Translations under genes and position numbers: made by a program
Assembly (NCBI GenBank): GCA_964017185.1
Contig: OZ024870.1
Coordinates: forward strand, 59,064,812 to 59,128,811
Reading direction: 5' to 3'
Length of the DNA: 64,000 nt
Source of the DNA: Rugalucina vietnamica
Lineage: Eukaryota > Mollusca > Bivalvia > Lucinida > Lucinidae
Part shown: one piece after another, positions 12,482 to 57,049 of the stretch
Layout: each line of letters starts with the position of its first letter
Numbering within the stretch: position 1 is the stretch's first letter
The notes under the pieces: model-generated
What the model was told of the DNA's origin: nothing
Databases searched by the model: none
What the model saw: only the letters and a program-made list of their open reading frames with translations

Positions 12482-12766
12482 TCAGTTGATTGTGTTTAGT
12501 GTGCTCGTGAACAAGTCCGGTAGACTTGTTCCTCCCTGCTCATAGTCTATGATACCCGACTGAATATCCGAAAGGGATTGTGTGGAACTCAAATCCGACA
12601 GGGATGACGAACTATTGTTACTTATTTCACCGAATGATTTATCGTCAATTTTTTCGTCGTCGCTCAGTGGTAATTCTCCTTCCGCGTTTTCCTGCAAGTT
12701 CGGCTTCGTGTCGTCTGATTTTAAAACATGTCGTCGGTATTTAGCACGTGCGTTTTGGAACCATAC
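12482..12766 (-). CDS. Lhx2/9: Gene A exon 5: homeodomain recognition helix and C-terminal tail
   Basis: This terminal coding exon starts after a clean acceptor (TGTATTTCAG just before VWFQNARAKYRR) and ends with TGA at 12482-12484. The first residues are the third helix of the homeodomain, with the DNA-contact W, F, Q and N positions intact. The split just before VWFQ is an intron position known from LIM-homeodomain genes. The rest is a 75-80 residue tail rich in Asp, Glu and Ser (LPLSDDEK, SNNSSSSLSDLSS) ending SLPDLFTSTLNTIN. Vertebrate LHX2/9 end in a comparable TTLTNLF, so the SLPDLF segment may be its counterpart (inference). No poly-A signal could be fixed with confidence; an AATAAA on the minus strand near 11210 is possible, which would place two small transposons in the 3' UTR. 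Confidence 0.93.
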   Translation of the reverse strand, partial: VWFQNARAKYRRHVLKSDDTKPNLQENAEGELPLSDDEKIDDKSFGEISNNSSSSLSDLSSTQSLSDIQSGIIDYEQGGTSLPDLFTSTLNTIN

Positions 12767-13114
12767 CTGAAATACATGACCAACCACAGTTTTGTAAAAG
12801 GTAAAGCATATCTTTAATCATATTCACATTATGTTATGTTTAAAAGGGCAATATATTTCCAGAACTTTCATTTTTAAAGCACAAGTGCTTACAACAATGA
12901 TGATGATTATAAATGGAAGTTATCGTTATGATATTGAATTGGAATATTCTAGTTTGCATAGATCTGCAGACAATACAAAATAAAATTTAAAAGTTTCGAA
13001 TCAAATGTTTCTATAGAGTTCTGGAACCAGATAAGACAAAATCCACATAATCTAATAAATTTGTGTGTACATGTACGGAGACGTACATTCATCGACCATG
13101 GTAGTTACACTTAC

Positions 13115-13329
13115 TTGTAAAACACGTTTTGAGAGACCTGTTTTCTGCGCAAGCTGTTTCAGATCTTTAGCGTCCGGGTTATGGTTCAGTGCGAAGTAAG
13201 ATTTCATTGCTCGTAGTTGGTGGTGCTTGAAAGAGGTTCGCACTCTCTTCTGTCTGTTCTGCCCACCCGACATATAACCATCTTGGCCCAACAGCTCGGG
13301 CGGCGTCTCTCCATCACCAGGAATGTAAC
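13115..13329 (-). CDS. Lhx2/9: Gene A exon 4: inter-domain linker and first two-thirds of the homeodomain
   Basis: The acceptor reads TCTCGTTGCAG followed by GTTACATTCC, and the donor reads TTACAA followed by GTAAGTG. The exon completes a Gly codon begun in exon 3 and ends in phase 0. It encodes a short Gly/Pro-rich linker (GYIPGDGETPPELLGQDGYM) and then the homeodomain start QKRVRTSFKHHQLRAMKSYF, ALNHNPDAKDLKQLAQKTGL and SKRVLQ. These 45 or so homeodomain residues are nearly identical to vertebrate LHX2/LHX9, which read RTSFKHHQLRTMKSYFAINH in the same place. This is the strongest evidence for the Lhx2/9 class within LIM-homeodomain genes. Only a 348-bp intron separates it from the helix-3 exon. 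Confidence 0.95.
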
Positions 13330-13356
13330 CTGCAACGAGATGTTTTTAATCAAAAC

Positions 13357-13542
13357 TATCTCATAGGGAAAACATACCCGTGAAATGCATAACCCTGTAA
13401 ATTCCATTTTTATATAGAAAACTGAGGTTTGCAGGGGTGTACCTAATTTTCTTATTTTTGATCCAAAACATTCATTGTGGATACTCGTTAGAACCGCCTC
13501 GGTTTTGAGCAAAAATATTGAAATTTTCAGTTTTTACAGCTG

Positions 13543-13573
<31 letters not shown>

Positions 13574-13603
13574 GTATATTGCATGGGCGTGTTTTCGTAA
13601 TGT
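13357..13603 (-). repeat. B-family element, partial, 28 bp into intron 3 of gene A
   Basis: It begins CTCATAGGGAAAACATACCC and ends GGCGTGTTTTCGTAATG. Only one arm of the hairpin is kept, and an A run (about 13541-13567) has expanded inside. Confidence 0.72.
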
Positions 13604-20103: not shown

Positions 20104-20456
20104 CCATAGCTCTCTGTGTATATCCGGTCCCCTCTGGCGGAGGAATTTTCCTCTTACGCGGTCTTCCTTTCTGAACTCTTTTAGTTCCTGTGTAAAAGGG
20201 AATGTCGTCTGGCACTGATCCCAGAACCCCCGGGGAAAGTGACTGGAGCGTCTGACCTTGAATAATAGCCTCATAATCATCTCGACAATACACTAGTCCA
20301 TCACGCATGCCGAAATAGTCCCCGGGTAATAATGTCTTTGCGCATGCGCAACAGGAAAAACAGTTCATGTGAAACACAAAGTCTTTAGCACGCATCACCA
20401 TTTCGTTTGCGGCGATTCCCAGACGACATTTAGCACAGCACTTTATTGAGAACCGT
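20104..20456 (-). CDS. Lhx2/9: Gene A exon 3: second LIM domain and basic linker
   Basis: The acceptor is TTTCCTTTTCAG with a good pyrimidine tract, and the donor is GCTATGG followed by GTAAGA. The exon opens in phase 2 so that the LIM1 exon joins as YYRRFS, the same junction as vertebrate LHX2/9. LIM2 reads CAKCRLGIAANEMVMRAKD, then VFHMNCFSCCACAKTLLPGD, then YFGMRDGLVYCRDDYE. The zinc ligands of both fingers are present (CxxC, HxxC, CxxC, and CxxD at the end). After about 30 variable residues comes VQKGRPRKRK, a basic motif typical of LHX2/9. The exon ends with one base of a Gly codon, which exon 4 completes. Confidence 0.94.
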
Positions 20457-21399: not shown

Positions 21400-21608
21400 C
21401 TGTAATAATCTTCTTTACAATAAACATTCCCTTCCCTCACAAAACACGTGGGCTCGTTGTCCAGGTGATATTTACAGTCATAACATTGTAAACAGTGCAC
21501 GTGCCAATGATTGTCTGCTGTTTTCAAGAAATATCTATCCACTATTCTCCCGCCACATCCGGCGCAATATCTTGGATCGTCTGTTTGTGCATCAACCATA
21601 GGCATCGT
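21400..21608 (-). CDS. Lhx2/9: Gene A exon 2: first LIM domain
   Basis: It encodes MPMVDAQTDDPRYCAGCGGR, then IVDRYFLKTADNHWHVHCLQ, CYDCKYHLDNEPTCFVREGN and VYCKEDYYR, a LIM1 domain with all eight zinc ligands. The donor (TACAG followed by GTTAGTG) leaves phase 2, matching exon 3. The proposed 5' boundary follows TTACAG and gives ACG ATG CCT, which aligns with CTG ATG CCT at the start of the gene B LIM1 exon and with the MP at the same exon start in human LHX9 as I recall it. The pyrimidine tract here is weak. Alternatives are an in-frame CAG 21 bp upstream, or a start at an ATG at 21645-21647 that would make a shorter isoform lacking exon 1. The LIM1 identity is certain; the exact 5' edge is not. 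Confidence 0.88.
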
Positions 21609-23780: not shown

Positions 23781-24097
23781 AAATTGTGTAATGTATGTAC
23801 TGTCATGTGATCAGTAAGTAATATTAATGACACTGTGATTCAACTTATGTGATTGTACATGTGTATGTATGCTATGTATTCGTAGAAGAATAATGCACAG
23901 ACATGACTACCTTTCATTTATTTAAAATTGTTAAAGATGCAAGGGCTGCAATTTTGATGAGTTTTTGTATCCGATTAAGTCATCATAGCAGATTGTATTG
24001 CGTGTCCACGCTTTGCTGAATATAATTAGGTAATCTGCCAAAATTCTACATTTCCTAGCATTTATCTAAGATCTGGTACTAAACCTCCATCCATTAT

Positions 24098-27000
24098 GTG
24101 CTATCACTGGTATTGATGGACAGTGCTGGGTCAAATAGACCGCAGCGTAGAACGGCCCTTGTGGGCAGAGAACTTGGGAGGTATGGAATTCAGATAGCAG
24201 CTCTGAGTGAGACTCGGTTAGCAGATGTTGGGGAGATCAAAGAAGTTGGTGCTGGATACACCTTCTTCTGGAGTGGACGCAAAAGTGAAGAGAGGCGTGA
24301 AGCAGGAGTTGGCTTTGCCATTAAAACAGAACTTGTTGGTAAGCTTTCAGGATTGCCAAAATGCATCAATGACCGCCTAATGACATTGAGACTTCCTCTG
24401 TCAGGCAATAAACATGCAACTATTGTCAGTGCCTATGCACCCACGATGACCAATCCAGATGAGGTTAAAGACAAGTTCTATAATGACTTAGATGACATTA
24501 TTTCTGCTACACCCCGTACAGACAAACTTATCCTTCTTGGAGACTTTAATGCCAGAGTTGGTACAGACCATCAGACCTGGGAAGGAGTTATAGGTCCAGA
24601 AGGTGTTGGAAAGTGCAACAGCAATGGTCTCTTGCTTCTAAGGAAGTGTGCTGAACATGATCTTCTAATCACCAACACAGTCTTTCGTCTACCTAACAGA
24701 AATAAAACATCCTGGATGCATCCCCGTTCCAAACATTGGCATCTCATAGACTATGTTATAGTGCGGAGAACAGATAGGCAGGATGTCAGAGTGACAAAGA
24801 CTATGTGTGGTGCAGACTGCTGGACAGACCATAGACTGGTTGTCAGCAAACTCAACCTTAGAATCCAGCCTGCGAGGCGACCTCAAGGCAAGAAAGCTGC
24901 TAAAAGACTGGATGTCTCAAAGCTGAATCAAGACAGCATGCGACAAGCTTTCTTAACAGACATTTGCAACCAACTGGATGCAATCAATCTCAGTTCAGAG
25001 AACCCCGAAGAAAACTGGACAGTCTTCCATAAAACAGTTCATTCTTCAGCTGCTACTACTTTAGGACATCCATCTCGCAAACATCAAGACTGGTTTGATG
25101 AGAATGATGACGAAATTCAGAAGCTTCTTGAAGAAAAACTCAGATTGCACAAGGCACATCAAGATGATACTAGCTCAGTATCCAAGAAAGCAGCCTACAG
25201 CAACGTTTGTAAGACAGTCCAGACCAAGCTTAGGGACATGCAAGATTCCTGGCTGAGGAAGAAAACAGAAGAAATTCAGTCTTTTGCAGACAGAAAGGAC
25301 ATGAAGAAATTTCATGATGCACTGAAAACCATTTATGGCCCTAAGAGTTCTGGAGCCACCACATTACTCAGTGCAGATGGAAACACTCTTCTCACAGACA
25401 AAGAGGCTATCTTGAAAAGGTGGGCAGAACATTTCAATAGTGTGCTAAATCGACCATCAAGCATCAATGAGGATGCAATTGACAGACTGCCACAGATAGA
25501 GTGCAATGTTCCGTTAGATGAATTTCCAACCGTCATGGAAACAAGAAAAGCAGTTCAACAACTGTCTTCTGGCAAAGCTCCAGGTGCAGATGCAATTCCT
25601 GCAGAGGTTTATATGGCCGGGGGGCTACCCATGGCAGAGAAACTGACCGAGCTGTTTCACTGTATGTGGAGGAAGGAGGCCATCCCACAAGAATTTAAGG
25701 ATGCATCCATAATCCACCTATACAAGCGGAAAGGAAATCCACAAGTCTGTGATAACCACAGAGGCATTTCCCTCCTATCGATTGCTGGGAAGATACTAGC
25801 AAAAATTCTGTTGAACCGCCTGAATGTTCATCTTGATCAGAAGGGACTTATCCCAGAAAGTCAATGTGGATTCAGAAAGGACAGGGGGACGATAGACATG
25901 ATCTTCACAGCAAGACAGCTTCAGGAGAAATGCCAAGAGCAGAATGTAGATCTATACATGACGTTTGTCGACCTCACCAAAGCGTTTGACACAGTAAGTC
26001 GTGATGGACTGTGGAAAATCATGGCCAAGTTTGGCTGTCCACCCAGATTCATAGCAATGGTGCGGCAATTTCATGATGGCATGCAGGCACGTGTGCAAAA
26101 TGATGGAGAGTTCTCTGAACCCTTTGAGGTAACAAATGGGGTCAAACAGGGCTGTGTTATGGCACCAACACTGTTCAGCATGATGTTTTCTGCCATGCTC
26201 ATGGATGCTTATCAGGACAGTGACACTGGTTTTCCAATCAGGTACCGTTTTGATGGCAATATATTCAACCTTAGAAGGTTGCAAGCCAAAACTAAGGTGC
26301 AGACCGATGTGCTAGATGAGCTCCTCTATGCAGATGATATGGATAAGAATGCCAGCTCAGAGGCAAAAATGCAAAGAGCCATGGATCAAGTCTCACAGTC
26401 ATGTGATAACTTTGATCTCACAATCAGCACAAAAAAGACAGAGGTTGTACACCAGCCAGCACCTGGAAAACCGTACAATGAACCAACCATCACTGTGAAT
26501 GGAGAAAAACTGAAAGTTGTTGATAAATTCACCTACCTGGGAAGCACTCTTTCCAGAGCAGTGCACATTGATGATGAGGTCACTGCAAGAATTGCAAAAG
26601 CCAGTGTGGCATTCGGAAGACTCCGTGCAAATGTCTGGGAGCGAAATGGAATCAAGCTTGACACCAAGCTGAAAGTCTACAAGGCTGTGGTACTTCCAAC
26701 CCTCTTGTATGCATGTGAGACCTGGACAGTATACCAGCGTCATGCAAAGAGACTTAACCATTTCCACTTAAGCTGTTTGAGAAAGCTGTTAAAAATCAAG
26801 TGGCAAGACAAGATCCCAGACACAGAGGTCCTGAAGAAAGCAGGGATGCAAAGCATGCATACTGTCTTAAAGCTAGCACAGCTAAGGTGGACCGGCCATG
26901 TTATAAGAATGCCTGATGAGCGACTTCCAAAGAAAGTCTTCTATGGAGAACTACAAGAGGGAAAGCGCTCTCAAGGTGGCCAGAAGAAACGCTACAAAGA

Positions 27001-27313
27001 CACCCTGAAAGCCTCTCTGAAGGATTTTGACATACCAATTGGGTCTTGGGAACAGACTGCACAGGAGCGATCAAAGTGGCGAGGTCTCATCAACAAAGGA
27101 GCAGCTCTCCATGAAAAAAAGAGAATCTGTGAAGCTGAAAGAAAGCGCAGAGAACGCAAAGCCAATACCAATGGGCCACCAGCTGATTCAATGACATTGA
27201 CTTGCTCTACTTGCAACCAACAGTTTAGAGCTAGAATTGGCCTAGTCAGCCATCAAAGAACTCACCAACACACACGAACCTATTCAAGAAATAATGATGG
27301 TCTTTCTCATTAG
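24098..27313 (+). CDS. LINE (non-LTR retrotransposon) polyprotein: endonuclease, reverse transcriptase, C-terminal zinc finger
   Basis: This is one long open frame of about 1070 codons with no internal stop. Residues about 30-250 are an apurinic-type endonuclease (IAALSETRLADVGE, GDFNARVG near 148, TDHRLV near 243). Residues about 440-850 are the reverse transcriptase: SSGKAPGADAIP near 490, FVDLTKAFD near 623, GVKQGCVMAPTLF, the catalytic LLYADDMD with YADD near 744, and FTYLGSTL. The C-terminus has WTGHVIRMPDERLPKKVFYG and a C2H2-like finger, CSTCNQQF then HQRTH, near 1036-1055. The usual start of such proteins is missing: the family match begins at MDSAGSNRP (residue 7), so the copy is 5'-truncated and the first six codons are flank. 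It lies antisense inside intron 1 of gene A. Exact clade not resolved. Confidence 0.93.
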   Translation: MLSLVLMDSAGSNRPQRRTALVGRELGRYGIQIAALSETRLADVGEIKEVGAGYTFFWSGRKSEERREAGVGFAIKTELVGKLSGLPKCINDRLMTLRLPLSGNKHATIVSAYAPTMTNPDEVKDKFYNDLDDIISATPRTDKLILLGDFNARVGTDHQTWEGVIGPEGVGKCNSNGLLLLRKCAEHDLLITNTVFRLPNRNKTSWMHPRSKHWHLIDYVIVRRTDRQDVRVTKTMCGADCWTDHRLVVSKLNLRIQPARRPQGKKAAKRLDVSKLNQDSMRQAFLTDICNQLDAINLSSENPEENWTVFHKTVHSSAATTLGHPSRKHQDWFDENDDEIQKLLEEKLRLHKAHQDDTSSVSKKAAYSNVCKTVQTKLRDMQDSWLRKKTEEIQSFADRKDMKKFHDALKTIYGPKSSGATTLLSADGNTLLTDKEAILKRWAEHFNSVLNRPSSINEDAIDRLPQIECNVPLDEFPTVMETRKAVQQLSSGKAPGADAIPAEVYMAGGLPMAEKLTELFHCMWRKEAIPQEFKDASIIHLYKRKGNPQVCDNHRGISLLSIAGKILAKILLNRLNVHLDQKGLIPESQCGFRKDRGTIDMIFTARQLQEKCQEQNVDLYMTFVDLTKAFDTVSRDGLWKIMAKFGCPPRFIAMVRQFHDGMQARVQNDGEFSEPFEVTNGVKQGCVMAPTLFSMMFSAMLMDAYQDSDTGFPIRYRFDGNIFNLRRLQAKTKVQTDVLDELLYADDMDKNASSEAKMQRAMDQVSQSCDNFDLTISTKKTEVVHQPAPGKPYNEPTITVNGEKLKVVDKFTYLGSTLSRAVHIDDEVTARIAKASVAFGRLRANVWERNGIKLDTKLKVYKAVVLPTLLYACETWTVYQRHAKRLNHFHLSCLRKLLKIKWQDKIPDTEVLKKAGMQSMHTVLKLAQLRWTGHVIRMPDERLPKKVFYGELQEGKRSQGGQKKRYKDTLKASLKDFDIPIGSWEQTAQERSKWRGLINKGAALHEKKRICEAERKRRERKANTNGPPADSMTLTCSTCNQQFRARIGLVSHQRTHQHTRTYSRNNDGLSH

Positions 27314-33250: not shown

Positions 33251-33442
33251 CTCGTTCATGTAATCCATATGCCCATCATCCCCATACAGTCTTTCATATT
33301 TCACACCCTCCCCTCCATCGCTCGGGGAATGTTGGTATTTCTCTATCATTCTGTCGTCTTTATCAAATCTTTTTCTGGTCTCTCTATCCGTCTCTTCAAT
33401 GCTCGTAGTTTCGCCCCATTTGGGGAATTTCGTTTCCAACAT
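33251..33442 (-). CDS. Lhx2/9: Gene A exon 1: N-terminal coding exon with start codon
   Basis: This is a 64-codon exon starting at the first ATG (33440-33442) after an in-frame TAA and ending at GAACGAG followed by GTAATG, a sound donor in phase 0, as exon 2 requires. The protein begins MLETKFPKWGETTSIEETDR and ends ERLYGDDGHMDYMNE. It is charged and looks disordered, as expected for the region before LIM1 in LHX2/9. Support is indirect: correct strand, correct phase, the resulting total of exactly 418 codons, and a GC-box-bearing region just upstream. There is no recognisable domain, so RNA evidence is needed. The gene B first exon has the same phase and a loosely similar end (SHMEDKFYTESVNQ). 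Confidence 0.68.
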
Positions 33443-33879
33443 ATGAGATGAAACAATCACTTTTTAGAACCCACGTTCACACTTAGATTGGTCACTATAA
33501 TTTCCAGTCTAAGCCTGTCAAAGGTGGCTTTCAACTTCTCCAGGAAAATACTTTTAATACAATTACTAACATAAATCGTAATCAGTTAACAAAGAAAAGT
33601 TTTTCGAATTGTTTAGTTTTAACTAACTGTGACAATTCTTGATTTTTGAAGCTACTAAAATATGCTTTGCACAGGTGTGTGTATCCAAAAGAAAAATCAT
33701 CAAAATCACGAATCAAATGTTATTTTGAGTGTGAAGCATTATATATGAAGATTCACTATTTGTCCACTGTCAATACTCTATTCATCCTCTTTATTTCTTA
33801 AGCTTTTCTCCTTAATCCTTATTGTTTGCTTAAACAGTGGCAAGTATTTAAGAGAAGTTTTGTATTTATCACCGTGAAA

Positions 33880-35155: not shown

Positions 35156-35181
35156 AATCAGTCAGTCAGTCAGTCAGTCAG

Positions 35182-35636: not shown

Positions 35637-36757
35637 AATTTATTTCAGCCTGTTGTTTCTATACGACCCATCGAAGACAACTTAATACTAATGACCCAGC
35701 TCCACTTTCCGAAGATTTCTGCGACGTTTCTCCAAACGAAGCTACTTAGTCTCGTTGCAGACGTTACTTGGAGCTCGTGAGCACGTGCAGAAATGTTTTC
35801 CGAGCTCATTATTTTCTACTTCTTGGACATTCATATCGATCACATAGCGGTCTTCAACGTGATATACGTGTTTTGCGCACATTTCTTGTAATTTAAGGAA
35901 ATCCATCGTATCATTTTCAGAATTTATTTGAATGTATTGTATCTGCATTTTTCCCAAATGTTGCAATAATTTGAAATTGTGTTTTAGAATGAATTTATTC
36001 CTAGTTATGGGTGCGCTGTTTGCTGGCATCACCAGGGTCCAAAAACCAAAAATACTCAGCAAAACAAACTTATGTAGTGTCAGCTATAAATATATGGTGG
36101 TAGGCTGGCACAAAATATCACGGTCGTCTTGACTGGCATGGATCTAACCATGTTTGTAAGGCCGGCTTGATGTCATTTTTTTCAATTTTTATGAAATATG
36201 GACAAGATCTGAATAAGTTGTTTGTTTAAAGCTGGCAAAAGCCAAAAACTGCTTAAGTTGAAAGGGGCATTTACAACTGAAACGCTGGAACTGCTTGAAC
36301 GTCCCCTGAGCAATCAATGCCTCGCCAGGCTAGGCGAAACCGAACAAACACTCAAATACCAAATACCCCTGGAAAAATAACAAGATCGATTTCATTGCTC
36401 ATTCTGGCATTGTACAATTTCCTTCCTTTGACAACAGTATCATTATCAGGTCATGAATTACTCCATATTAGCGACAAATTGTTCCTTTGCAGGCATCATG
36501 CAAACCGGAATCTGTGGATTTTTACAATTATTTTGTCACCATCTCTTGATAAATCGCTAATAAGTGGTTTTTCATTATGTCGAATTCGCTTAAAGAAGTA
36601 ATTTCCATGTTAAGATGCCATCTTGTGGAAATATGACCTTCTTGATTCCAGCTTTTGGAAATAAAATTGGAGTTAAAGCGGGAAATTCTCCGGAAAATTA
36701 TGTCCCAATGGTCCTATGTTGAATGAGTATGACTGAGTGAAGCATTAAGCAGTCATT

Positions 36758-36760
<3 letters not shown>

Positions 36761-36813
<53 letters not shown>
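36761..36813. repeat. GA dinucleotide microsatellite
   Basis: About 26 perfect GA units. Confidence 0.97.
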
Positions 36814-36817
<4 letters not shown>

Positions 36818-36929
36818 CTTTTCCCTGATATTGGAGAAATAAGGTGCTAGAGGCTTTGTTAGAACTGTCAAAGATTTCAAAGCATCGTAATACACCATGC
36901 AGATATATTTGAATAAAAGTGGAATAACA

Positions 36930-39900: not shown

Positions 39901-40300
39901 GAGAGATAATTTCTACAAATCATTTTTTGAGAGTTTCGAAGGAAAAGATAAAATCACCGAATTTGATAACAAATGACACGTGTTAAATGTCTTCAGCTAT
40001 TAATTATGATTTCTTGGACTGTAACGGTTGTTTTAACATTGACATGTTTAGGCTGGTAGGAGAAAATAAACTATTGCATGTATGCGCAATGTAAAGTTTC
40101 AAAATGTGCATGCTGTGTGTTAAACTCCCTTTAATTTTATACACTTGTGGCACATATATGTCAATTTGAACAACTTTTCCATACCACAAGTATAAGCTTT
40201 AACAAAAAGCTTGGTCTACGCTTCGCATATATAAATTAGAATGTCAAAGAATCTGACCGTACTCCCATTTCATCGTGGTGCATTTGACTGAACAGAAATA
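36930..40300. promoter_or_regulatory. Repeat-poor, mixed-composition intergenic block; candidate shared enhancer region
   Basis: This stretch between the two divergent Lhx2/9 genes has few of the repeats that fill the rest of the window and a more even base composition. It carries scattered homeodomain-type ATTA sites (for example CTGTAATTAACAAC near 38315 and ACGATAATTAATAAG near 38212). Near 39005-39095 is a tight cluster of motif-like words: CTTATCC (GATA type), AACAATGG (SOX type), GTCAGCTGAC and GTCACGTGAC (E-boxes). No coding potential was recognised. Enhancer function is inference. Confidence 0.3.
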
Positions 40301-40309
40301 AAACGCTGT

Positions 40310-40505
40310 GCTGTGAAAGCATTCATACCTGACAATCGACCGTCACGATGCTATCGGTTCATTTAATTTCGTTGTGGCTTGGATCATGAGAATGTAAATG
40401 GCTACACAGGTGGGGCGCGGTCAAAGCTTTCATACCTGACCATATAGCGTCACAATACCGTCGGTTCATTTCATTCCGTTGTTGCTTAGATAGGATGCAA
40501 TCATG
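40310..40505. repeat. Two diverged tandem units of about 108 bp
   Basis: The phrase TTCATACCTGAC-AT-G-CGTCAC-AT-C-TCGGTTCATTT occurs near 40321 and again near 40429 with about 20% differences. Confidence 0.65.
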
Positions 40506-40737
40506 CACCAGTTCCACGAATTTAACAATTTGCCCCATTTTTGGTACCAACTGCACCGTTACCAACCAAAGGGAGGTTTGCATGGGTGTTTTGGGGTGTT
40601 TACACGGTCCTTGGCGAAACGACCCGGAATCCTACTAACACGATGGTCAAGCCACTAGACTCAAACCGTGCAGTTGCAGTTGTAGAGAGGTGTAAGAGTT
40701 GTCTTGTAAGTAGGTCAATCTCAAACATTAGAGTAGT

Positions 40738-40920
40738 CTACGCGCTGGCGCGTAGACAATACCAGCGCGTAGACAATAAATGTCTGATAGCAGAGATATC
40801 CGCCGCTAGCGAGGAAACACATTTCTTTTGAAAGTAGAGCTGGCTTAATACTATGTATCAGGAGCATATAATCTTCTCAGGAGCATATAATCTTCTGAGA
40901 TATTATAGGCTCCTGTATGT
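40738..40920. repeat. Short palindromes
   Basis: GTCTACGCGCTGGCGCGTAGAC (40737-40758) is a near-perfect palindrome, followed by AATACCAGCGCGTAGACAAT. Then AGGAGCATATAATCTTCTCA occurs twice in tandem (40860-40897), followed by an inverted partner ATTATAGGCTCCTG. Confidence 0.6.
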
Positions 40921-41519
40921 ATACGAAACACTTTTCTGAAATTGTTACATACAAAGGTAAGGCTAAATCATGAAAGTCACCAAAATGTGACACTTTTCAT
41001 GGCCTTCACCGTACATGTTTCTTGGTGCCACTGATGACATTTTTAAACAGCTTCCAGAACCAAAGTTCGCGTGTTGTAATAATCTGATTATTACAATTTT
41101 ATCAAAGCGTGTTTCTTTGATTAGTTTATTGAATTTATTTATTGGCATAATATCGCGAGACCAAATTTTATTGACTTATTAGCGAGTTTACGGCATCAAA
41201 ATGACAGTGAAACCCTAATAATGGGCTACAAACCGAAATGACGATTTTACGACTTCATATTCAATTTTTCAACCGTCGTCCAGAACATTTGAGGTCAACC
41301 AACTATTGCGCTGGGTACATTTATGGCCATTGGACGTATAGCTTGGCTTAACACGTCGTGAATTCAAGTTAAGGAGTGAATAAAATTGTCAGCCATAAAA
41401 AATGCGGTTTTGAATCATTGCTTCAGATTATCAGACAATGTTTAAAACAAAAATACATGAACAATTCTTTGTCATTGCTCACATTGTCATTGTCAAGTGC
41501 TCGAGCGACCAGATGCGTG

Positions 41520-41640
41520 CGTTTCTTAACATTGGTAAAAATGGTACCATTGGTAGACAAATACCGTTCAAGGTTTTACCAATTGTACCATTGGCAATGA
41601 CATTGGTACCATTACCAACGGTACCAATGTTACCAACATA
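41520..41640. repeat. Cluster of ACCATTGGTA / GGTACCATTGG palindromic words, left
   Basis: ATTGGTAAAAATGGTACCAT then TGGTAGACAAATACCGTTCA and further TACCATTGG words. A related cluster lies at 43405-43530, on the other side of the tandem-unit element. Confidence 0.6.
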
Positions 41641-41770
41641 TTATGGCAGCAAATGACGCAGACAGAATACAGTATCGGTAAATCTATTAAGACGTGAAAG
41701 GTCATGTTATTCAATATGGCAAGCTTAAAATTATTTCATGAATTTCATAAATAATCACTAATTTTTTTTT

Positions 41771-43296
41771 TTAACTCACCTGAGCCGAAAGCTCACAGGT
41801 GAGCCTATAGTATACCCATGCTCCGTCGTCCGTCCGTCCGTCGTCCGTCGTCCACAATTTCAAAGATTTTCTACTCTGAAACCGCATGGCCAATCAAAGC
41901 CAAACTTCATGTGGAGCATCCTTAGGAAGGGGGAACGAAAGTTTATATAAATGGTTCAGGTCACATTACCAAGATGGCCGCCATGGCTATAAATAGCAAA
42001 AACCTTTAAAAAATCTTCTTCTCCAGAACCAGTGGGCCGATTTCCACGAAACTTGGTATGTAGCATCTGGGACTTAGGCCCATCATAGTTTATATAAATC
42101 ATGACCTAGGATGACCTTGGCCTATTTTACGGCAAGGTCAACTTAGGTCGCCAATGCATTTGAATGGGAAAAAAATGGTAAAATGCTATTTAATGGGTAA
42201 AACTTACTGGGAATGGCAAATGGACAGAAGATTAATGTTAATGGAAAATTTTAGCCCCTTGGGGGTTGTCTGCCCCTGCCCCGGGGCTATATACATGTAT
42301 ATTTCCATAATAATGAAACATCTTCTCCCCTGAAACCGCTTGGCCAATCAAAGCCAAACATCATATGGAGCATCCTTGGGAAGGGGGAAAGAAGTTTTAT
42401 ATAAATGGTCAAGGTCACATGACCAAGATGGCCGCCATGGCATAAACAGAAAAAAAAAACCTTTAAAAATCTTCTTCTCCAGAACCAGAAGGCCAATGAT
42501 TTTGAAACTTGGTGTGAAGCATCAGTGACTGAAGCTCTACAAAGTTTATATAAATCATGACCCTGGGATGACCTTGACCTATTTTACGGCAAGGTCAACA
42601 TAGGTTGCTCATGCATTTGAATGGGAAAAAAGTGTTAAAATGTAATTTGTAGGGAAAAACTTGCAGGAAATGGGCAAATGGACTTAAGATTGATGATTCT
42701 GAAAAAAAAATGGACCCCAGGGGTCTGTCTGCCCCCACACCGGGGAAATATACATGTATATTACAGTGATATTCAAAGATCTTCTTTTCTGAAACTGCTT
42801 GGCCAATCAAAGCCAAACTTTATGAGAAGCATTGTTAGGCAGTGGGAATGAAAGTATACATAAATGGTCAAGGTCACATGACCAAGATGGCTGCTATGGC
42901 TATAAATAGCAAAAACCTTTAAAAATCTTCTTCTCCAGAACCAGAAGGCCTATGATTTTGAAACTTCGCATGAAGCATCAGGCAATGGAGCTCTCCAAAG
43001 TTTATATAAATCGTGACCCTTGAATGACCATGACCTATTTTACGGCAAGGTCAACTTAGGTCGCCCATGCATTTGAATGGGGAAAATTGTTAAAATGTCA
43101 TTTGAAGGGCAAAACTTGCAGTGTATTGGCAAATGGACTGAGGTTTTATGTTTTCAAAAAGAAATTGACTCCAGGGGTTGCTCTGACCCGGCCCTGGGGT
43201 TATATACATGTACATTACCATTCTAGTCAAAAAAGTTTACTGGTATATATCTCGGGTTTCAGGTGAGCGTTTACAGGACCATTGGTCCTCTGGTAT
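41771..43296. mobile_element. 1.5-kb non-autonomous element with three tandem 455-460-bp units
   Basis: Its termini carry AACTCACCTGAGCC and inverted TTTCAGGTGAGCG. Inside, three long units begin near 41875, 42330 and 42790 (CTGAAACCGCTTGGCCAATC then AAAGCCAAAC). Each continues with CCAAGATGGCCGCCATGGC, CTTCTTCTCCAGAACCAG, ACGGCAAGGTCAACTTAGGT and a TATACATGTATAT spacer. The first unit follows several CCGTCGTCCGTC words. I recall similar CTCACCTGAGC-ended repeats being widespread in mollusc genomes; no database check was done. No transposase is encoded. Confidence 0.78.
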
Positions 43297-43404
43297 TAAA
43301 GATGAAATGTAAATTTTTCTATGATAAATAACACAATATACATAGAAAATAAAAAAGGCAAAAACGATTGCGGTAGGTGTATTGATTAATATTATAAAAA
43401 TTCC

Positions 43405-43530
43405 ACCATGTGATCTACCAATGGTACCATTGTTATTGGTAACAGAAAAACGTTCAGGGTTTTCGGGTTGCCATTGGTAAAAATGTTACCAATGGTACCA
43501 TTGGTAGATTTGCAGGTGTTATCATTGGGA
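43405..43530. repeat. Cluster of ACCATTGGTA / GGTACCATTGG palindromic words, right
   Basis: CTACCAATGGTACCATTGTT and, about 70 bp on, GTTACCAATGGTACCATTGG. Together with the left cluster it brackets the 41.8-43.3 kb element. Confidence 0.6.
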
Positions 43531-43912
43531 GAACCCCGAACGTACATGTAGCCACTATTCGCAAAAGGGGATGGGGCGGCCAGTAGAATGGTCTAATCAG
43601 CAAAAGGCATCGCGTCGGAAATAGAAGAGAGAATGTCCTAGCGTGTTGTGACCTTCAACATGGAACATTCGCCTTCAACGGACTTTGCTTTTAGACATTA
43701 AGCTTTTTCCCCCCATTTTCAGGTCCTGGGAGAAAGACGTTTTGATGTCACAAACAACATCATGAAATGCTCTTTTGTGGATTTCCGCAGTGCCAGACTG
43801 CAGCATGGACCAGCCTTTGATAATTGTAAAGATAGATCAAACTGTTTGTTATGCTTTTAATTTGTTTTCAAACATATCAGTTCTAGGTTACGTTGGGAAT
43901 CGCATACATTTC

Positions 43913-44192
43913 ATCAGGAAAACATGTCCGTGTAATGTATACCCCCTTGAACCCCACTTTTATATAGCAAAATTGGGGTATGCAGGGGTATACCTATTTT
44001 TCTTATTTTTGGTCCAAAACATAGATTGTGGGTACTCGTTAGAACCGCCTCATCGAGGCGGTTCTAACGTGTACCCACAATCTATGTTTTGAGCAAAAAT
44101 AAGAAAAATATGAATATTTTTTTACTGAAAATTTTCAATTTTTACAACTTTAAAAATCTCTGTTTACTGCATGGGCAAGTTTTCGTAATGTT
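43913..44192 (-). repeat. B-family palindromic element, full, reverse orientation
   Basis: It begins CATCAGGAAAACATGTCCGT and ends GGGCAAGTTTTCGTAATG, with central GAACCGCCTCATCGAGGCGG. Confidence 0.85.
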
Positions 44193-44727
44193 CAGGCCTT
44201 AGATTTTATGACATCGTAAACAAAATTATCAGACTCTTCTTCAACTTTGTGGTGAAGTTTCCAATAAATGCTCTGATATTTCAGAGCAAGACATTCTATC
44301 GATAATGAAATTCAAATAATTTTCAGAAAGTTGTTTATATAATGATATCTCGAATAGATGTGTTTTATTTATGTTGTACACAAAGATAGCGAAGCATCAT
44401 CAGTTTTAGTGTTTTGGCATTAAGATGTCTCCATACGCCATAAAACGTAGGGCGTGTATTTATACACCTGTCATTGTTGGGATGCTGACAGTTTGATGTG
44501 CTCGTGTTGATGGACAGGTTCGATACGCCTCTGTGTTGTGTTAGCACAAATCTTTAAATGCTACTTGCATACAATAGTGCATGTTGTTGTCGTGTTTCGC
44601 ATGTTTAATAATTCCTTCAATATTGTCTTCCTAAATTTCAGATTACACCATGAAATGGGCGGACCTGTAGTAGGAACCATGGCTCTACCATTAGAACTTT
44701 CTGGGATTAGTACCTTTCAAAATAAAT

Positions 44728-44948
44728 GAGCCGCCTCGTGGGAAAACCAACAATGTGGTTTCCGAACAGGTCCGACACAAACCAGCCTGTACAAGTATAG
44801 AAAAGAGCTAGAAGCTTGAAATTTCGGATTTAAGTAGAAGAGGAATTGTACTATCCGAGTAGTGAAAACAAAGGCGCTGTTACCGCGAAGCTGATCTGCG
44901 TCTTTGTTTTCGCACATGCAGATTGTAGGTTTTCTCACGAGGCGGCTC
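44728..44948. repeat. GAGCCGCC-family element, copy 5
   Basis: A 221-bp copy in reverse orientation, with one arm of the central palindrome shortened. Confidence 0.85.
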
Positions 44949-46204
44949 AAATGTAAATTGATGTATCATTTTTGAATGGCTATACCTGTAATATTTGAAA
45001 GGAATTTCTTGCCATTTTTGTCAATGTGGCTGTCAAATTTTCCAGATAAATTGGCGAACTTTCGTTGTATTCCGCATTTGGTTGGCTCCATAATTTTACT
45101 TGTCCTGTTGACCAAATCCATAAATAACATATTGATTCTATTGACAAGCATTTCTCCGCAGATCTATCATGAAACAAGGCATGTAATTAGTCTCGCGTGC
45201 ACGCACATGCCACGAGATTTGGCGAGATAAATGATATTTTTATCTTGCTCGCGGATAGCTACAACTGCGATAAGTAGGCCCCCAGTCGTGATACATGGTG
45301 TAAAAACGTCGTGACAAGCATTATTTGCGGTAAAAGAATATTTTCTGGCGTTTATATCACGTGTTTTTTGTCTTTAAGAAAAGTTTAAAATCTCATCAGT
45401 TTGATTTTCTTCGTTTGGCGCCATTCTCAGTGCAAACACATCATGGCATTTCGATACGGACGTTTGGTCCAATAAACCAACAAGTCGTTTCTACACTGGC
45501 AGACCCAAGACGTACCTACCTACCCACGAAGCACATGTCATTTTGTTACTACAGATTATCGACCGAGGGAAGCTTTTGATTTCTTTCATTGCGGTTTTAA
45601 AATACATGTTCTAAAAAGGTAAACAAAATGTAACACGTTCCTTCAGCTTTCTCATAAATACTTCAAATACCTTTGTTGATATTACACAAAATGCACAAAC
45701 TTTTTAAATACGGCTTCTTTTATATTTTCTAGGATATATCAAATATCAATGTTGACACACAAATTTAAATCGGAAGTTTTATTTACAAAAGTAGTACTTT
45801 CAGGTCCTATCCTTTATACCGTGTTAAACGTTTCAATATTTGAACAGCCGGTGAAATCCCACCATCGTAGAAAATATCACACCTTTGAATGTACCGTTAG
45901 AATTAGCATGTTTCGATTTGCTTTAGTGAATCGTCTGACATCCCAAGAGCCTGCATGGTGTACATTAAACTTTTTCGAAGTCAGCTCAGAGTAGGGACAT
46001 GGGCATTCGAAAGAACTTCCATAGTTACAGTTGTGTACATTGTGTGTGTTGTCACAGTGATGATTTAAAGATATATCCTCATAATTTTCTGTTTACCGCT
46101 TTTGTGATCGTAACCTTTGTAATTGGTTGATGCTAGCAGGACTTGATGGCTACCTTGTTGGGAAAAAGCTAATCATTTTGCTTTTCATACTTGTTGTAAC
46201 ATTT
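44949..46204. other. Intergenic sequence, nothing recognised
   Basis: Moderately complex sequence upstream of gene B with no domain-bearing frame. It could hold regulatory DNA but shows no specific sign. Confidence 0.4.
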
Positions 46205-46445
46205 GAGCCGCCCCATGGGAAAACCAACAATCTGCATAGGCGAAAACAAAGGCGCAGATCAGCTTCGCGGTGACCGCGAAGCTGATCAGCGCCTTTGTTT
46301 TCGCTACTCGGATAGTACAATTCCTCCTCTACTTAACTCTAAAAGTTCAAGCTTCTAGCTATTTTCTGTGTTTGTACAGGTCGGTTTGTGTCGGACCTGC
46401 CTGAAGTTCGGAAACCACATTGTTGGTTTTCCCACGAGGTGGCTC
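46205..46445. repeat. GAGCCGCC-family element, copy 6
   Basis: A 241-bp copy with the central palindrome AGCTTCGCGGTGACCGCGAA intact. Confidence 0.85.
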
Positions 46446-47074
46446 ATTTTTGGAATGTTTAGTGGTGTACTTTCTTTGCCGCCTGGTGTCTTGGTTGGGG
46501 TTTTATTTTTATTGTATCAGTTCCTTTGCCATTTATTGATCTATATTCCGCTTACTAATGTATTTCTGTTCTGTTTTTCGCTAGCTTTGAACATTCTGCG
46601 TTTTTATTCATAATCCTCGGTTCTTCATGCATAACAAGTGTTAACTTGTGACATCCTTGACAAAGTATCAAAAATGTATCAAAAGTTGATCTAAGGAACA
46701 TGTGTACTAGAAGTACCTCTTTGAAACCACTTTGAGTTTGGACTGTCCTTGATTTTACATTGTCAAAAATCTTGTAGATATTCTTATAATACACATTTTG
46801 AAATGACGACAATATACATTGGTATTATTATTATCATTATTATTATTATTTGTTGTTGTTGTTCTTGGTGATGAGTAGTGGCTGAATAAATTAATTCAAT
46901 ATTATACATATAATGCTAGAGATGCAAGGCATCTATGAAGATCAGTATCTGGAAAATACTGAATACTACGAGCTCCGATCACCTACATACAGACTATGCG
47001 GTTGTTATCGTTCTAAGAGATCGATGCATACACTATTATATTCATCCGCTTGTTTGCTATAGGCTCTTAAAGCT

Positions 47075-47125
47075 GCTGAAGCTGAGAGGGCGGGTTGAAA
47101 TATTAAGCTCCGCCTTGATAATCAA
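47075..47125 (+). promoter_or_regulatory. Candidate GC-box pair upstream of gene B
   Basis: GAGAGGGCGGG (about 47085-47095) and CTCCGCC (about 47108-47115) form two opposed GC-box-like motifs about 500 bp before the gene B start codon. The surrounding sequence is AT-rich. This is only motif-level support. Confidence 0.25.
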
Positions 47126-47601
47126 ATGATATGATTCCCGTTATTTACAAATTAGATTCTGTGCGGGGGATAAAATATAATAATACATTTAACTCTCTAG
47201 AGAAGCTTGCGAAACCAATGTAAATATCCTACCGCGCAGGCTATAACCGGGTTATTTAGATAGAAAATAGAGAGATTTTGAGGAGTTTTTGATCTCAAAG
47301 ATTAAAAACGTTTGTTTTATTGTTGAAACTTGAATGGTGCGGAACATTTGTAAAAGATGAAATTTTCTGCAAGTGTTTAAGTGGGATTATATTACAGGAT
47401 TAAAATACTTTAACCTTCTATACAGGGCCATCTTCAAAACAACACCCATTGATGTTTATATTGATAATGTTCGGCAAATAAGCGCTTTGAAAAAAAAAAA
47501 AAAAAAAAAAAAAAAATGAATCTTAAATGTGACTATTGATAAAACTTTCCGGCTAGACTTTTCACCTGTTGTCATAGAAACTGGGCTTCTAGAACTTCGT
47601 T

Positions 47602-47706
47602 ATGATCGAGCGACAGATGACCAGTCCGACGGACGAAGATTTCCCGCGGGGTGGTGGCACCATGAGTCACATGGAGGACAAATTCTACACTGAGTCCGTA
47701 AATCAG
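47602..47706 (+). CDS. Lhx2/9-like: Gene B exon 1: short N-terminal coding exon
   Basis: This is a 35-codon exon: MIERQMTSPTDEDFPRGGGT then MSHMEDKFYTESVNQ, followed directly by GTAAATAG as donor. The ATG is the first after an in-frame TAG and has G at -3. It ends in phase 0, which is what the gene B LIM1 exon needs, and it mirrors gene A exon 1. It is too short to stand out as an open frame. It was found by looking for a partner to the LIM1 exon on the same strand. No domain is present, so the call rests on start context, donor, phase, composition and position. A GAGCCGCC-family repeat begins only 27 bp into the intron. Confidence 0.62.
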
Positions 47707-53750: not shown

Positions 53751-53831
53751 AAAATTCCCCCTGGGGGAAGAGGGTATGGGTAGCTACAAGAAAATTCCCC
53801 CTGGGGGAAGGGGGTATGGGTAGCTCGAAGA
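53751..53831. repeat. Two tandem 40-bp units inside N2
   Basis: AAAATTCCCCCTGGGGGAAG followed by a GGGTATGGGTAGCT stretch occurs twice in a row with few changes. CCCCCTGGGGG is itself a palindrome. Confidence 0.8.
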
Positions 53832-54826
53832 CTATTAGTTATCATAACAGGTTTTGATATTTTTGCACTCATATGACTTTTGACCTAACTATGTGACCCA
53901 GAGGCAGTTACAGACTTGGAATATACCCATATGAGTTTAAACACTTGTCAATGAATAAAATAAGCACATGTTGCCTTTAGTCAGTTCATGTTTGATTTAA
54001 GAAATATTTGATTATTGTAACGGGTGTTTGTTATTTTGCACTCATTAAACGTTTGACCTAATTGTGTCACCCAGGAGCATTTACAGTCTTGGCATCCACC
54101 TCTATGTCTTTGGACACATGTCAAGGAATGACATGAGTACAAGTTACCTATAATCAGTCCATTATTTTCCAAAACAATAATGTCTACTTTCATTTTTACA
54201 GATTTTTGCTATTTTGCACTCGTTTGACCTTTGACCTTGTTCTGTGGCCCAGGGTCATTTACAGACTTGGCATCCACCCGTACGAGTTTGGGCACATGCC
54301 AAGGAATATTATGAGCTTAGATAGACCAATGTACTAAAAAATGCCAACAAAACCAAAACTAAGCCACTTTTTTGGATTTGGACTGCCAAGTAGTTTTAGA
54401 ACTAATAAAAATCACATTGTCTTGCATATATACTAATTATTTTCGCATCCTTTATTGGCATGTTAAACCCTATAGAAGAGGTTTGGAATATTAAGAAAAG
54501 TAGATGTGTCATTTCCTAACAATAAATTTCACCCACTATGGTATTCTGTGCGGAGAAACAAAACATGAAACTTTATGATGAAATGCCAACCTACGTTTTG
54601 GCAGAATTCAACGTCAGAGGTGACTCCACAGCACTTTAAATAAAAATCAAAACTGAGATCCTTTAAGAGCAGTGAACACATTAATAAGAGGATGGGTCAT
54701 ACCGCGGTTTCGACTATTAAAGCCTCGCCAGTGACCCTTTAGATTTGGCAGCATGGAGCCAAAGAGAATTACTGAAAATTTGCAACTTTCTACAGGGTAG
54801 TCGATCGAAGACTAGTATTATCTAAA

Positions 54827-55255
54827 GGCACTGTGCATTTTATGGAGTGGAGTCATGGATTGGAGTCTTGAATTGGAGTCATGGAATGGAGTATTGGAGT
54901 GGATTATTGGTGTGGACCCTTGGAGTGAAGTTTTGAGTGTAGTGGTGAAATTTGTCTCGGGGCGAATTTACGCCAACACAAAATGTGTAACAAAAGCATA
55001 AACTGTGCGAGTAATGGATAAGTAACAGAAACTAAACCATTTATTTCCATTACTTATACTAGTAATGCATTTGTTACATGTTTCGCTATGGTGTCCATTC
55101 AAATGAGACTAATTCTACCACCAGAATAAATGTTTATCTTACGCTCCAACATTTCACTCCAAGGTTCCACTCCAAGAATCCACTCCAATACTCCACTCCA
55201 TGGCTCCAATCCAAGACTCCAGTCCATGACTCCACTCCATAAAATACACAGTGCC
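54827..55255. mobile_element. 429-bp fold-back element made of GGAGT-rich repeats, 9-bp target duplication
   Basis: The left arm (GGCACTGTGCATTTTATGGA then repeated TGGAGT words) pairs with the right arm (ACTCCA words, then TCCATAAAATACACAGTGCC). The perfect 9-bp TTATCTAAA flanks both sides (54818-54826 and 55256-55264). A 9-bp duplication fits a Mutator-like origin. The arms themselves are tandem degenerate repeats of about 16 bp. It lies in E2 between two 45-bp direct repeats (about 54638-54680 and 55451-55494). Confidence 0.75.
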
Positions 55256-55610
55256 TTATCTAAATGGGAAAAAATATACTATTAAGCACTGATTAGAAAA
55301 TGAATCTTGACCGATAATAAAATTTCTTGAATTCTCAGAATATCCTCGCTGATCTCAAAGGACCGAAAAGAAAATATAGCCTGCACTATGGATGATGTAC
55401 GGGGAGACTTTTAGTGCAACCACACGGCACAACACCAGCTGCAGTAATAGCAAATAAAAATAAAAAATGAGATCCTTTAAGAGCAGTGAACACATGCTTA
55501 CCTCATGAAGGAACCAATGTGGAATCTTGCCTTTTACAACCGTCTGGTGGAATATTAGTTTTCTTGCAAAATAACATCGACATGCTTAGTTTTATATTGT
55601 AACAACTGTT

Positions 55611-55841
55611 TAGACCAGCTACTAGTATGATAAATAAGGTTTTGTTGCGGTTGTTTTTTGCATTCAAGTTTAAATTGTTTTTTCTTGAAAGTTAGAGAAC
55701 CAGATATTTTCTGATGAACATATCTTGGCTAGATTTATCGAGACAGAGAAGTAGACTCATATTATGTCAAAATGATGTACATTTTATATAAAAGATTCTA
55801 CCTATGTAAATTTGTCATTTTAACGCCTAGTGGCTAGGCTA
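55611..55841 (-). mobile_element. TAGCC-family element, copy inside E2
   Basis: It is bounded by TAGACCAGCTACTAGTATGA and GCCTAGTGGCTAGGCTA, imperfect inverted repeats of the family also seen at 2209 and 6781. The flanks are ACAACTGTT on the left (55602-55610) and ACAACTGCT on the right (55842-55850), a 9-bp duplication with one change. The related E1 arm lacks the insert. Confidence 0.8.
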
Positions 55842-56822
55842 ACAACTGCTTTACCAAGAAATTCTAAAATCCACATCGATTGAAAATCAGGGTGAAACTT
55901 TGTAAAGAGTGCTCATAAATACACAGCCTTGGTACAAAAGGGATTATGCTTACATAAATTACAAACCATTAACCATGTTTCCTTGTGTTTAAAACTCGAA
56001 TATCAGCGATTGTTTTGTTAAAAAAATTGGGCTCCTTTATTATGTAATCAATTCAGGCATACAGCATCTCAAAACTGGAAGTTTTATATACAGATTAAAT
56101 ATTTACACTCATACTTAACAAAATATATAAACAAATTCTTCCAGTTATTCATTTCTTGCCAGTGACGATTGTTCAAAAGCAAAAAGAGTTGTCAATTTAT
56201 TTCTGAATAGCGCAAGGGTATATTAATAACTGAACGCAGCTGTACATGTAATATAGACTAGTATAAATTAAACGGATAGATATTTCACATAAACATATAA
56301 GTGCACAAATTTTCCAGGAAAGCAAATTTAACAAGTTTTATACAGACATTTGAAAGATTTAATTAAACCCAAATCGTACATTTCACCCAATTAAAATATT
56401 TTTCCTCAGAAAACTGCAATAGGTGGCTAGTAGGTACATGTAAAGGTCAAACAAACAAAATTTAATTTTCAGCCCGAACACGAATATATAAAATGAATCG
56501 CATCAGTATATTTTAGTTTTTATTTTAAACTTTCTGAGCTTGGCACCACTATTCCAGTCCCCCCCCCCCCATAAAAATCAAATGGTCGCTCCCTTAATAT
56601 TGTTCTTTTGATAAGTGGGACGAAATAATAAATTCTGTCTCTCGAGGTAAAGTGTTATTCATACGTATATTTGTTTGTTTATTTATAACTGTTTATTTAT
56701 AAACGATTCACACTTTAGTGAGACTTTTATTGATCGAGTGCATGTATGTGTTCATAGATCCAACTAGTAATCAGTAATGCCATATAGGGGACCTTCAGAA
56801 ATAGAATACCTCTCGTTTTCAG

Positions 56823-57049
56823 CTGATGCCTGTTGTAAACCTAGACTCCAAAACGATGGTTGAAGGTCAGCCCGTGGTCCTCTGTGCCGGGTGCGGTACC
56901 AGAATCTTAGATCGGTTCTTTCTCCTGGTTGCCGAGCAGCACTGGCACGTGACATGTCTACGGTGTGTCGACTGCAACGCTCAACTCGATACTCAGCTCA
57001 CGTGCTTTGCACGCGACGGTAATATCTTCTGCAAAGCAGATTATTATCG
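56823..57049 (+). CDS. Lhx2/9-like: Gene B exon 2: first LIM domain
   Basis: A strong acceptor (ACCTCTCGTTTTCAG) precedes CTG ATG CCT, and an in-frame TAG lies upstream, so splicing is required. The exon encodes LMPVVNLDSKTMVEGQPVVL, then CAGCGTRILDRFFLLVAEQH, WHVTCLRCVDCNAQLDTQLT and CFARDGNIFCKADYYR: a complete LIM1 with all zinc ligands. The donor CG followed by GTAGGT leaves phase 2, as in gene A. A GTATGA four bases further on is an alternative donor but would break the family phase. It is six residues longer than gene A exon 2, all before the first zinc cysteine. The LIM1 sequence is of the LHX2/9 type (CAGCG...CFxRDGNIFCKADYYR). Confidence 0.88.

What the first reader, a model, noticed from the sequence alone, without database searches (positions are those of the whole stretch)
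12482..57049. Head-to-head pair of Lhx2/9 (apterous) paralogs with matching exon phases
Two LIM-homeobox genes of the same class lie on opposite strands with start codons about 14.2 kb apart. Their LIM1 exons share phases 0 and 2, start with the same MP, and match at about 35 of 56 positions. This points to an old local inverted duplication. Linked apterous duplicates are, as I recall, known from insects. If this linked divergent pair is conserved across molluscs, it would be a little-described LIM-homeobox cluster whose members may share regulation.
Basis: partly seen in the sequence, partly recalled or inferred. Interest (0 to 1): 0.78.

Follow-up and report, generated by a model that had tools for sequence, protein, structure and literature searches.

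The report
Divergent apterous/Lhx2-9 gene pair
A lophotrochozoan chromosome, probably of a mollusc, carries two old copies of the developmental control gene apterous side by side and facing away from each other: a real but fairly ordinary gene pair whose shared ancestry and possible shared control can now be tested.

Summary
The pair is real. Gene A (minus strand) and gene B (plus strand) are both LIM-LIM-homeodomain genes of the Lhx2/9 (apterous) class; B's missing exons lie just right of the window. Predicted start codons are 14,160 bp apart (33,442 and 47,602); the LIM1 exons are 35.2 kb apart, on sequence without gaps. A whole-genome search with B's domains returns A's three domain exons next after B itself and shows no third copy. 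Synonymous sites are saturated and no collinear duplicated flank remains, so the duplication is old. Whether the pair is mollusc-, spiralian- or protostome-wide could not be tested. Published tables give one Lhx2/9 in the Pacific oyster, 'A2' and 'B' in a serpulid annelid, and ap-A/ap-B in insects. C2 also holds Lhx3/4, Lmx, Lhx6/8, LMO4 and DENND1, matching the ancestral LIM-homeobox linkage already proposed from Trichoplax and human. Best reading: an old local duplicate pair with an unchanged DNA-recognition helix and diverged LIM domains, probably kept by regulatory subfunctionalisation (inferred).

The parts
33251..33442 (-). Gene A, predicted coding exon 1 (64 aa, start codon at 33442, donor GTAATG, phase 0)
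   Evidence: Frame-plus-donor scan; sequence. Predicted, not proven; similarity to gene B exon 1 is borderline.
21400..21608 (-). Gene A, LIM1 exon (acceptor phase 0, donor phase 2)
   Evidence: PF00412 match
20104..20456 (-). Gene A, LIM2 exon with KGRPRKRK linker motif (phase 2 to phase 1)
   Evidence: PF00412 match
13115..13329 (-). Gene A, first homeodomain exon (phase 1 to phase 0, split after homeodomain residue 46 by the Pfam match)
   Evidence: PF00046 match
12482..12766 (-). Gene A, last exon: rest of homeodomain (WFQNARAK), tail ending SLPDLFTSTLNTIN, stop
47602..47706 (+). Gene B, predicted coding exon 1 (35 aa, start codon at 47602, donor GTAAAT, phase 0)
   Evidence: sequence. Predicted, not proven.
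56823..57049 (+). Gene B, LIM1 exon (acceptor phase 0, donor phase 2). The remaining B exons lie right of the window in L009 (from G000:C2:59128812): LIM2 at window-extended 67099-67442, homeodomain exons 72702-72907 and 73176-73454 (stop).
33443..47601 (.). 14.2 kb between the two predicted start codons; holds dispersed repeats and a three-copy 456-bp tandem array at 41859-43218
24083..27310 (+). Non-LTR retrotransposon frame (endonuclease plus reverse transcriptase) inside the predicted first intron of gene A, opposite strand
   Evidence: PF00078, PF14529, PF03372

Best explanation
An old local duplication of a single ancestral Lhx2/9 (apterous) gene, most likely in the spiralian lineage, left two LIM-homeodomain genes back to back. 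Shown: both encode two LIM domains with all zinc ligands and a homeodomain with an identical recognition helix; A is the nearest locus to B in the genome; synonymous sites are saturated. Inferred: both bind the same TAAT-type sites and both recruit the LIM-domain-binding cofactor (LDB/Chip), so they differ mainly in when and where they are expressed and in LIM-domain partner affinity (LIM2 has diverged most, 29 of 57 identical). The pair is most likely kept because enhancers were divided between the copies (subfunctionalisation), with some enhancers between the starts or in flanking DNA possibly acting on both.
For: B homeodomain scores 108.9 bits against the Lhx9 homeodomain (2dmq); the other 40 listed chains score 46.7 or less. 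A homeodomain matches the same chain at 115.8 bits, next homeodomain 47.0. Searching the whole genome with B's three domains gives B's own exons, then A's homeodomain (81.0 bits), LIM1 (80.9) and LIM2 (72.2), then Islet LIM1 (63.9); of 28 rows none is a third Lhx2/9 gene (99 candidates scored). Eight zinc ligands in each of four LIM domains, and no A/B difference in homeodomain helix 3. Four introns at the same places and phases, 0/2/1/0. Five homeodomain positions are shared by A and B and differ from both the human and the fly row, four of them confirmed for the human side by 2dmq; this favours duplication after the split from flies. 42 of 59 fourfold sites differ. Of 215 arm-to-arm DNA matches two are exon pairs (homeodomain, LIM2); of the best 60, 56 recur at more than two other places on both sides and the other four are not collinear flanks. 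In the tree of the genome's own genes (10 rows) A and B group at 81/95, not a starred branch.
Against: With recalled human and fly rows the tree does not resolve A+B as sisters: the 13-row tree leaves them in an open fork; in the 9-row test the best of seven constrained trees puts B outside (A, human, fly) by 0.5 log units, and six of seven are not rejected by AU. A is as close to human LHX2 (33/57, 35/57, 52/59) as to B (35/57, 29/57, 54/59). The best solved-structure matches of A's LIM region are Islet-1, Lhx4 and Lhx3 fusions (134.5 bits and less), no Lhx2/9 LIM chain being listed. Expression, cofactor binding and enhancers were not tested. The exon 1 models are borderline.
Confidence: 0.7

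Rival explanations
1. The duplication is older than Spiralia: A and B descend from the same event as insect ap-A and ap-B, so linked apterous pairs are a protostome inheritance with losses in oyster and fly.
For: A-B distance is about as large as A-human distance. Insects generally have ap-A/ap-B (PMC9382207, PMC5832707, passages); pea aphid ap1 and ap2 are a tandem duplication 130 kb apart on one autosome (PMC12247715, passages). Trees with protostome-level duplication are not rejected by AU, p 0.107. At homeodomain position 35 B shares S with fly Ap and A shares A with human.
Against: Five homeodomain positions unite A and B against both human and fly. The two protostome-duplication trees are 9.5 log units worse than the best and fall outside the bp-RELL set, one also outside c-ELW. 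Only one fly row, recalled, was available and no ap-B.
Confidence: 0.1
2. A lineage-restricted duplication (for example within bivalves) with fast divergence of both copies.
For: The Pacific oyster table lists one Lhx2/9 gene (PMC5322547, passage). This genome also holds other linked homeobox pairs: two Lhx1/5 on C13, NK1-type and Tlx-type pairs on C2 (names recalled from signatures).
Against: Saturated fourfold sites, no collinear flank, LIM2 identity only 29 of 57, lower than between A and human (35 of 57); an annelid has Lhx2/9 A2 and B (PMC6118893, passages), though whether these match A and B here is unknown.
Confidence: 0.19
3. Gene B is another LIM class or a LIM-only gene that only resembles Lhx2/9 in LIM1.
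For: LIM1 of B is about as similar to this genome's Islet (32/57) and Lhx6/8 (31/57) as to human LHX2 (31/57).
Against: B has an Lhx2/9 homeodomain (108.9 bits to Lhx9), the KGRPRKRK linker and the same homeodomain split as A; joining B with Lhx6/8 is rejected, AU p 0.009.
Confidence: 0.01

Closest known systems
Lhx2/9 (apterous) class of LIM-homeobox genes: human LHX2, LHX9, fly apterous
   Same: LIM-LIM-homeodomain order; homeodomains 52 (A) and 51 (B) of 59 identical to the human row (recalled; residues 2-59 confirmed by 2dmq); KGRPRKRK linker (its presence in human proteins is recalled)
   Different: Two linked, divergent copies; LIM domains more diverged
Insect ap-A / ap-B
   Same: Two apterous paralogs; linked in pea aphid (130 kb, PMC12247715, passages)
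   Different: Orthology of the two duplications untested; the aphid pair is called tandem, here the genes are head to head
Annelid Lhx2/9 A2 and B (Spirobranchus lamarcki)
   Same: Two Lhx2/9 types in a spiralian, from transcriptomes (PMC6118893, passages)
   Different: Sequences not available here; no linkage in the passages I saw
Trichoplax LIM-homeobox cluster and human chromosome 9 and 1 LIM-homeobox genes
   Same: Trichoplax scaffold_2 has Lmx, Arrowhead, Lhx3/4 and Lmo in tandem and apterous further downstream (PMC2828406, section 6); LHX2, LHX3, LHX6, LMX1B on human 9q and LHX4, LHX8, LHX9, LMX1A on human 1 (PMC2211742, passage); here both Lhx2/9, Lhx3/4, Lmx, Lhx6/8 and LMO4 on C2
   Different: Here the genes are spread over about 32 Mb of one chromosome, not a tight cluster

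Membership tests
[quoted passage not shown]
   Pfam: LIM x2 and Homeodomain in both A and B, exons joined by me without exon 1
Lhx2/9 (apterous) class | Homeodomain closest to Lhx2/9 | tested here: met
   B 108.9 bits to Lhx9 2dmq, next 46.7; A 115.8 bits, next homeodomain 47.0
Lhx2/9 (apterous) class | Monophyly with known Lhx2/9 genes to the exclusion of other LIM classes | tested here: inconclusive
   B+Lhx6/8 rejected (AU p 0.009), but 13 and 9 rows only and low support inside the class; the best tree leaves B outside the others by 0.5 log units
Local inverted duplicate pair | Adjacent, opposite strands, closest paralog in the genome | tested here: met
   (B as query; A was not used as query)
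Local inverted duplicate pair | Residual duplicated flanking DNA | tested here: not met
   215 arm-to-arm matches: two exon pairs; of the best 60 none is a collinear flank; expected for an old event
Insect-type ap-A/ap-B pair (same duplication) | A and B orthologous to ap-A and ap-B | not testable with these tools
   no arthropod ap-B sequence held; indirect evidence against
Conserved mollusc LIM-homeobox cluster | Same pair at the same place in other molluscs | not testable with these tools
   no other mollusc genome held; a viral-contig scan gave no relative
Ancestral LIM-homeobox linkage group | Lhx2/9, Lhx3/4, Lhx6/8, Lmx and Lmo on one chromosome, Lhx1/5 and Islet elsewhere | tested here: met
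   C2 holds those five; Lhx1/5 pair on C13, Islet on C8, an LMO-like locus on C10 (class names recalled; not all 57 LIM matches were classified).

The most novel reading that the evidence does not exclude
Linked apterous pairs in this spiralian and in insects are one ancestral protostome arrangement, held together for over 500 million years by shared regulatory DNA, with the single-copy states of oyster and fly being losses.
Probability: 0.08. Interest if true: 0.75.

Novelty: new member of a known kind. Interest (0 to 1): 0.36.

Why it matters
A gap-free linked pair with exon maps lets one ask in any chromosome-level spiralian genome whether Lhx2/9 duplicates stay linked and divergent, and whether this reflects shared enhancers. 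It would also connect the insect ap-A/ap-B story, which bears on wing development and wing surface patterns, with spiralian developmental genes. The chromosome-wide LIM-homeobox linkage adds a spiralian data point to the ancestral linkage proposed from Trichoplax and human.

Tried and rejected
Intron phases as evidence for a private duplication: rejected, the LIM1/LIM2 intron is shared by 7 of 8 other loci checked. Residual DNA-level inverted repeat around the genes: none found. Vertebrate-like neighbours: Pfam on seven flanking, intronic or intergenic frames gave no family; DENND1, close to Lhx2 in vertebrates (PMC3100342, start of abstract and passages), is on the same chromosome but 3.0 Mb away. 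A systematic gene search of the flanks was prepared in a script but not run against a library. Rfam on the window: 0 matches. Viral contigs scan: 10 pattern matches, none confirmed. Dating by synonymous change: saturated. Recalled human exon 1 against both exon 1 models: no convincing match. Papers: ten searches listed no paper that I recognised as describing a linked divergent Lhx2/9 pair in a mollusc; the library holds open-licence papers only, supplementary files could not be opened, and the squid apterous study was seen only as a citation.
Full report
Where it lies. The window is part of a 1.09 Gb assembly of 47 contigs, on contig C2 (83.5 Mb), positions 59,064,812-59,128,811. Homeobox genes on C12 at 40.8-41.4 Mb include one with the Lox5 tail KLTGPD and two of Lox2/Lox4 type (loci L046, L043, L044). 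These signatures are recalled; they place the genome in Lophotrochozoa. That it is a mollusc is plausible but not shown.

The observation. Gene A on the minus strand has a LIM1 exon at 21,608-21,400, LIM2 at 20,456-20,104 and homeodomain exons at 13,329-13,115 and 12,766-12,482 with the stop codon. Gene B on the plus strand has LIM1 at 56,823-57,049 in the window; its LIM2 exon and two homeodomain exons with the stop codon lie to the right, at window-extended 67,099-67,442, 72,702-72,907 and 73,176-73,454 (sequences). The four introns have the same positions and phases, 0, 2, 1, 0. The 164 kb put together around them contain no N, so adjacency is not a scaffolding gap, although a misassembly without a gap cannot be excluded.

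Start codons. A scan for ATG-to-donor frames in phase 0, filtered for charged composition, gave one plausible exon for each gene: A 33,442-33,251 and B 47,602-47,706. The two share MIE[KR]xxxSP[ST]D; the score is the best of 36 candidate pairs, but 5.8% of 5,000 shuffles reach it. These exons are predictions.

B's homeodomain matches the Lhx9 homeodomain (2dmq) at 108.9 bits, and the other 40 listed chains score at most 46.7. Pfam finds two LIM domains and a homeodomain in each protein. Searching the whole genome with B's domains gives B's own three exons, then A's homeodomain, LIM1 and LIM2 exons (81.0, 80.9, 72.2 bits), then Islet LIM1 (63.9); among 28 rows there is no third Lhx2/9 gene. B with Lhx6/8 is rejected (AU p 0.009). 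The LIM region alone is less telling: A's best solved LIM chains are Islet-1, Lhx4 and Lhx3 fusions, no Lhx2/9 LIM chain being listed, and B's LIM1 is as close to this genome's Islet as to human LHX2.

Age. A and B share 35 of 57 residues in LIM1, 29 of 57 in LIM2 and 54 of 59 in the homeodomain; A and human LHX2 share 33, 35 and 52 (human row recalled, homeodomain residues 2-59 confirmed). Over the aligned protein 175 of 333 residues agree and 42 of 59 fourfold sites differ, so synonymous change is saturated. Of 215 arm-to-arm DNA matches, two are exon pairs (homeodomain and LIM2); of the best 60, 56 recur at more than two other places on both sides, and the remaining four are not collinear flanks. 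Five homeodomain positions are shared by A and B against both human and fly, while one (35) pairs B with fly and A with human (fly row recalled). This favours a duplication within the spiralian line, but the trees do not decide. In the 13-row tree A, B and the recalled rows sit in an open fork. In a 9-row test the best constrained tree has B outside, sister A+B is 0.5 log units worse (AU 0.611), and protostome-level duplication (9.5 units worse) is not rejected by AU (p 0.107) although it falls outside the bp-RELL set. The 10-row tree of the genome's own genes groups A and B at 81/95, short of the starred level.

The phase argument. The phase-2 LIM1/LIM2 intron is present also in Lhx3/4, its divergent neighbour, Lhx6/8, Islet, both Lhx1/5 genes and LMO4 of this genome; the Lmx boundary could not be read cleanly. 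The phases therefore show common LIM-family ancestry, not a private event.

How it probably works. The recognition helix is identical in A and B and all zinc ligands are present in the four LIM domains, so both should bind the same DNA sites and recruit LDB-type cofactors; this is inference from knowledge of LIM-homeodomain proteins. LIM2 and the tails have diverged most, so differences would lie in partner affinity and in expression. The 14 kb between the predicted starts is too long for one shared promoter; shared enhancers are possible and untested.

Chromosomal setting. Class names of the other genes are my reading of their domain sequences with recalled signatures. C2 holds Lhx3/4 (34.56-34.62 Mb), a divergent LIM-homeobox gene next to it (34.68), Lmx (38.08), LMO4 (45.45), the Lhx2/9 pair (59.1) and Lhx6/8 (66.79); Islet is on C8, two Lhx1/5 genes on C13, an LMO-like locus on C10. 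Trichoplax scaffold_2 has Lmx, Arrowhead, Lhx3/4 and Lmo in tandem and apterous further downstream (PMC2828406, sections 6 and 10 read), and human chromosomes 9 and 1 each hold the same four LIM-homeobox classes (PMC2211742, passage). The Trichoplax authors already proposed this linkage as ancestral. Five of eight loci on C2 has p 0.0001 by length but 0.015 against the homeobox-rich background of C2. A DENND1 gene, close to Lhx2 in vertebrates (PMC3100342, passages), lies on C2 at 62.14 Mb, 3.0 Mb away.

Literature. Insects generally have ap-A and ap-B (PMC9382207, PMC5832707, PMC3411629, passages); pea aphid ap1 and ap2 are 130 kb apart (PMC12247715, passages). Pacific oyster is tabulated with one Lhx2/9, and novel lophotrochozoan LIM clades without oyster members are mentioned (PMC5322547, passages). 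An annelid has Lhx2/9 A2 and B (PMC6118893, passages). In the passages I saw of the Hong Kong oyster, Eisenia, arachnid, Biomphalaria, cuttlefish and Neanthes papers there was no linked Lhx2/9 pair. Ten searches listed no report that I recognised of a divergent linked pair in a mollusc, within this open-licence library only.

Verdict. A correct observation of a real, old, linked pair of Lhx2/9 genes: a new member of a known kind, moderately interesting because it makes linkage and shared regulation of apterous duplicates testable.

Noticed in passing
G000:C13:42,272,478-42,284,932 (+) and 42,417,758-42,451,759 (-): Two Lhx1/5-type genes (class recalled from signatures) lie tail to tail, homeodomain exons about 133 kb apart; LIM1 44 of 55 and LIM2 46 of 58 identical. 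The Pacific oyster table lists one Lhx1/5.
   Followed up: partly
G000:C2:34,683,583-34,684,924: A strongly divergent LIM-LIM-homeodomain gene lies about 59 kb downstream of Lhx3/4 on the same strand.
   Followed up: partly
G000:C2, 34.56-66.80 Mb and 62.14 Mb: Lhx3/4, Lmx, LMO4, both Lhx2/9, Lhx6/8 and DENND1 share one chromosome, echoing Trichoplax and human linkage.
   Followed up: yes
G000:C2:29.55/29.59 Mb and 34.21/34.29 Mb: Linked pairs of NK1-type and Tlx-type homeobox genes (names recalled from sequence) on the same chromosome.
   Followed up: no
L063 (G000:C2:59,589,600-59,590,500): Half homeodomain ending WFQNRRIKWRKQ, perhaps of Not type (recalled), about 0.45 Mb right of gene B.
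   Followed up: no
window 21980-23051, 41859-43218, 50922-53027: Tandem arrays of 36, 456 and 188/376 bp units between the two genes' LIM1 exons.
   Followed up: no
L014, about 3.4-7.9 kb left of the window start: Run of long frames including a zinc-finger-like one, possibly a large mobile or virus-like element; only listed, not examined.
   Followed up: no
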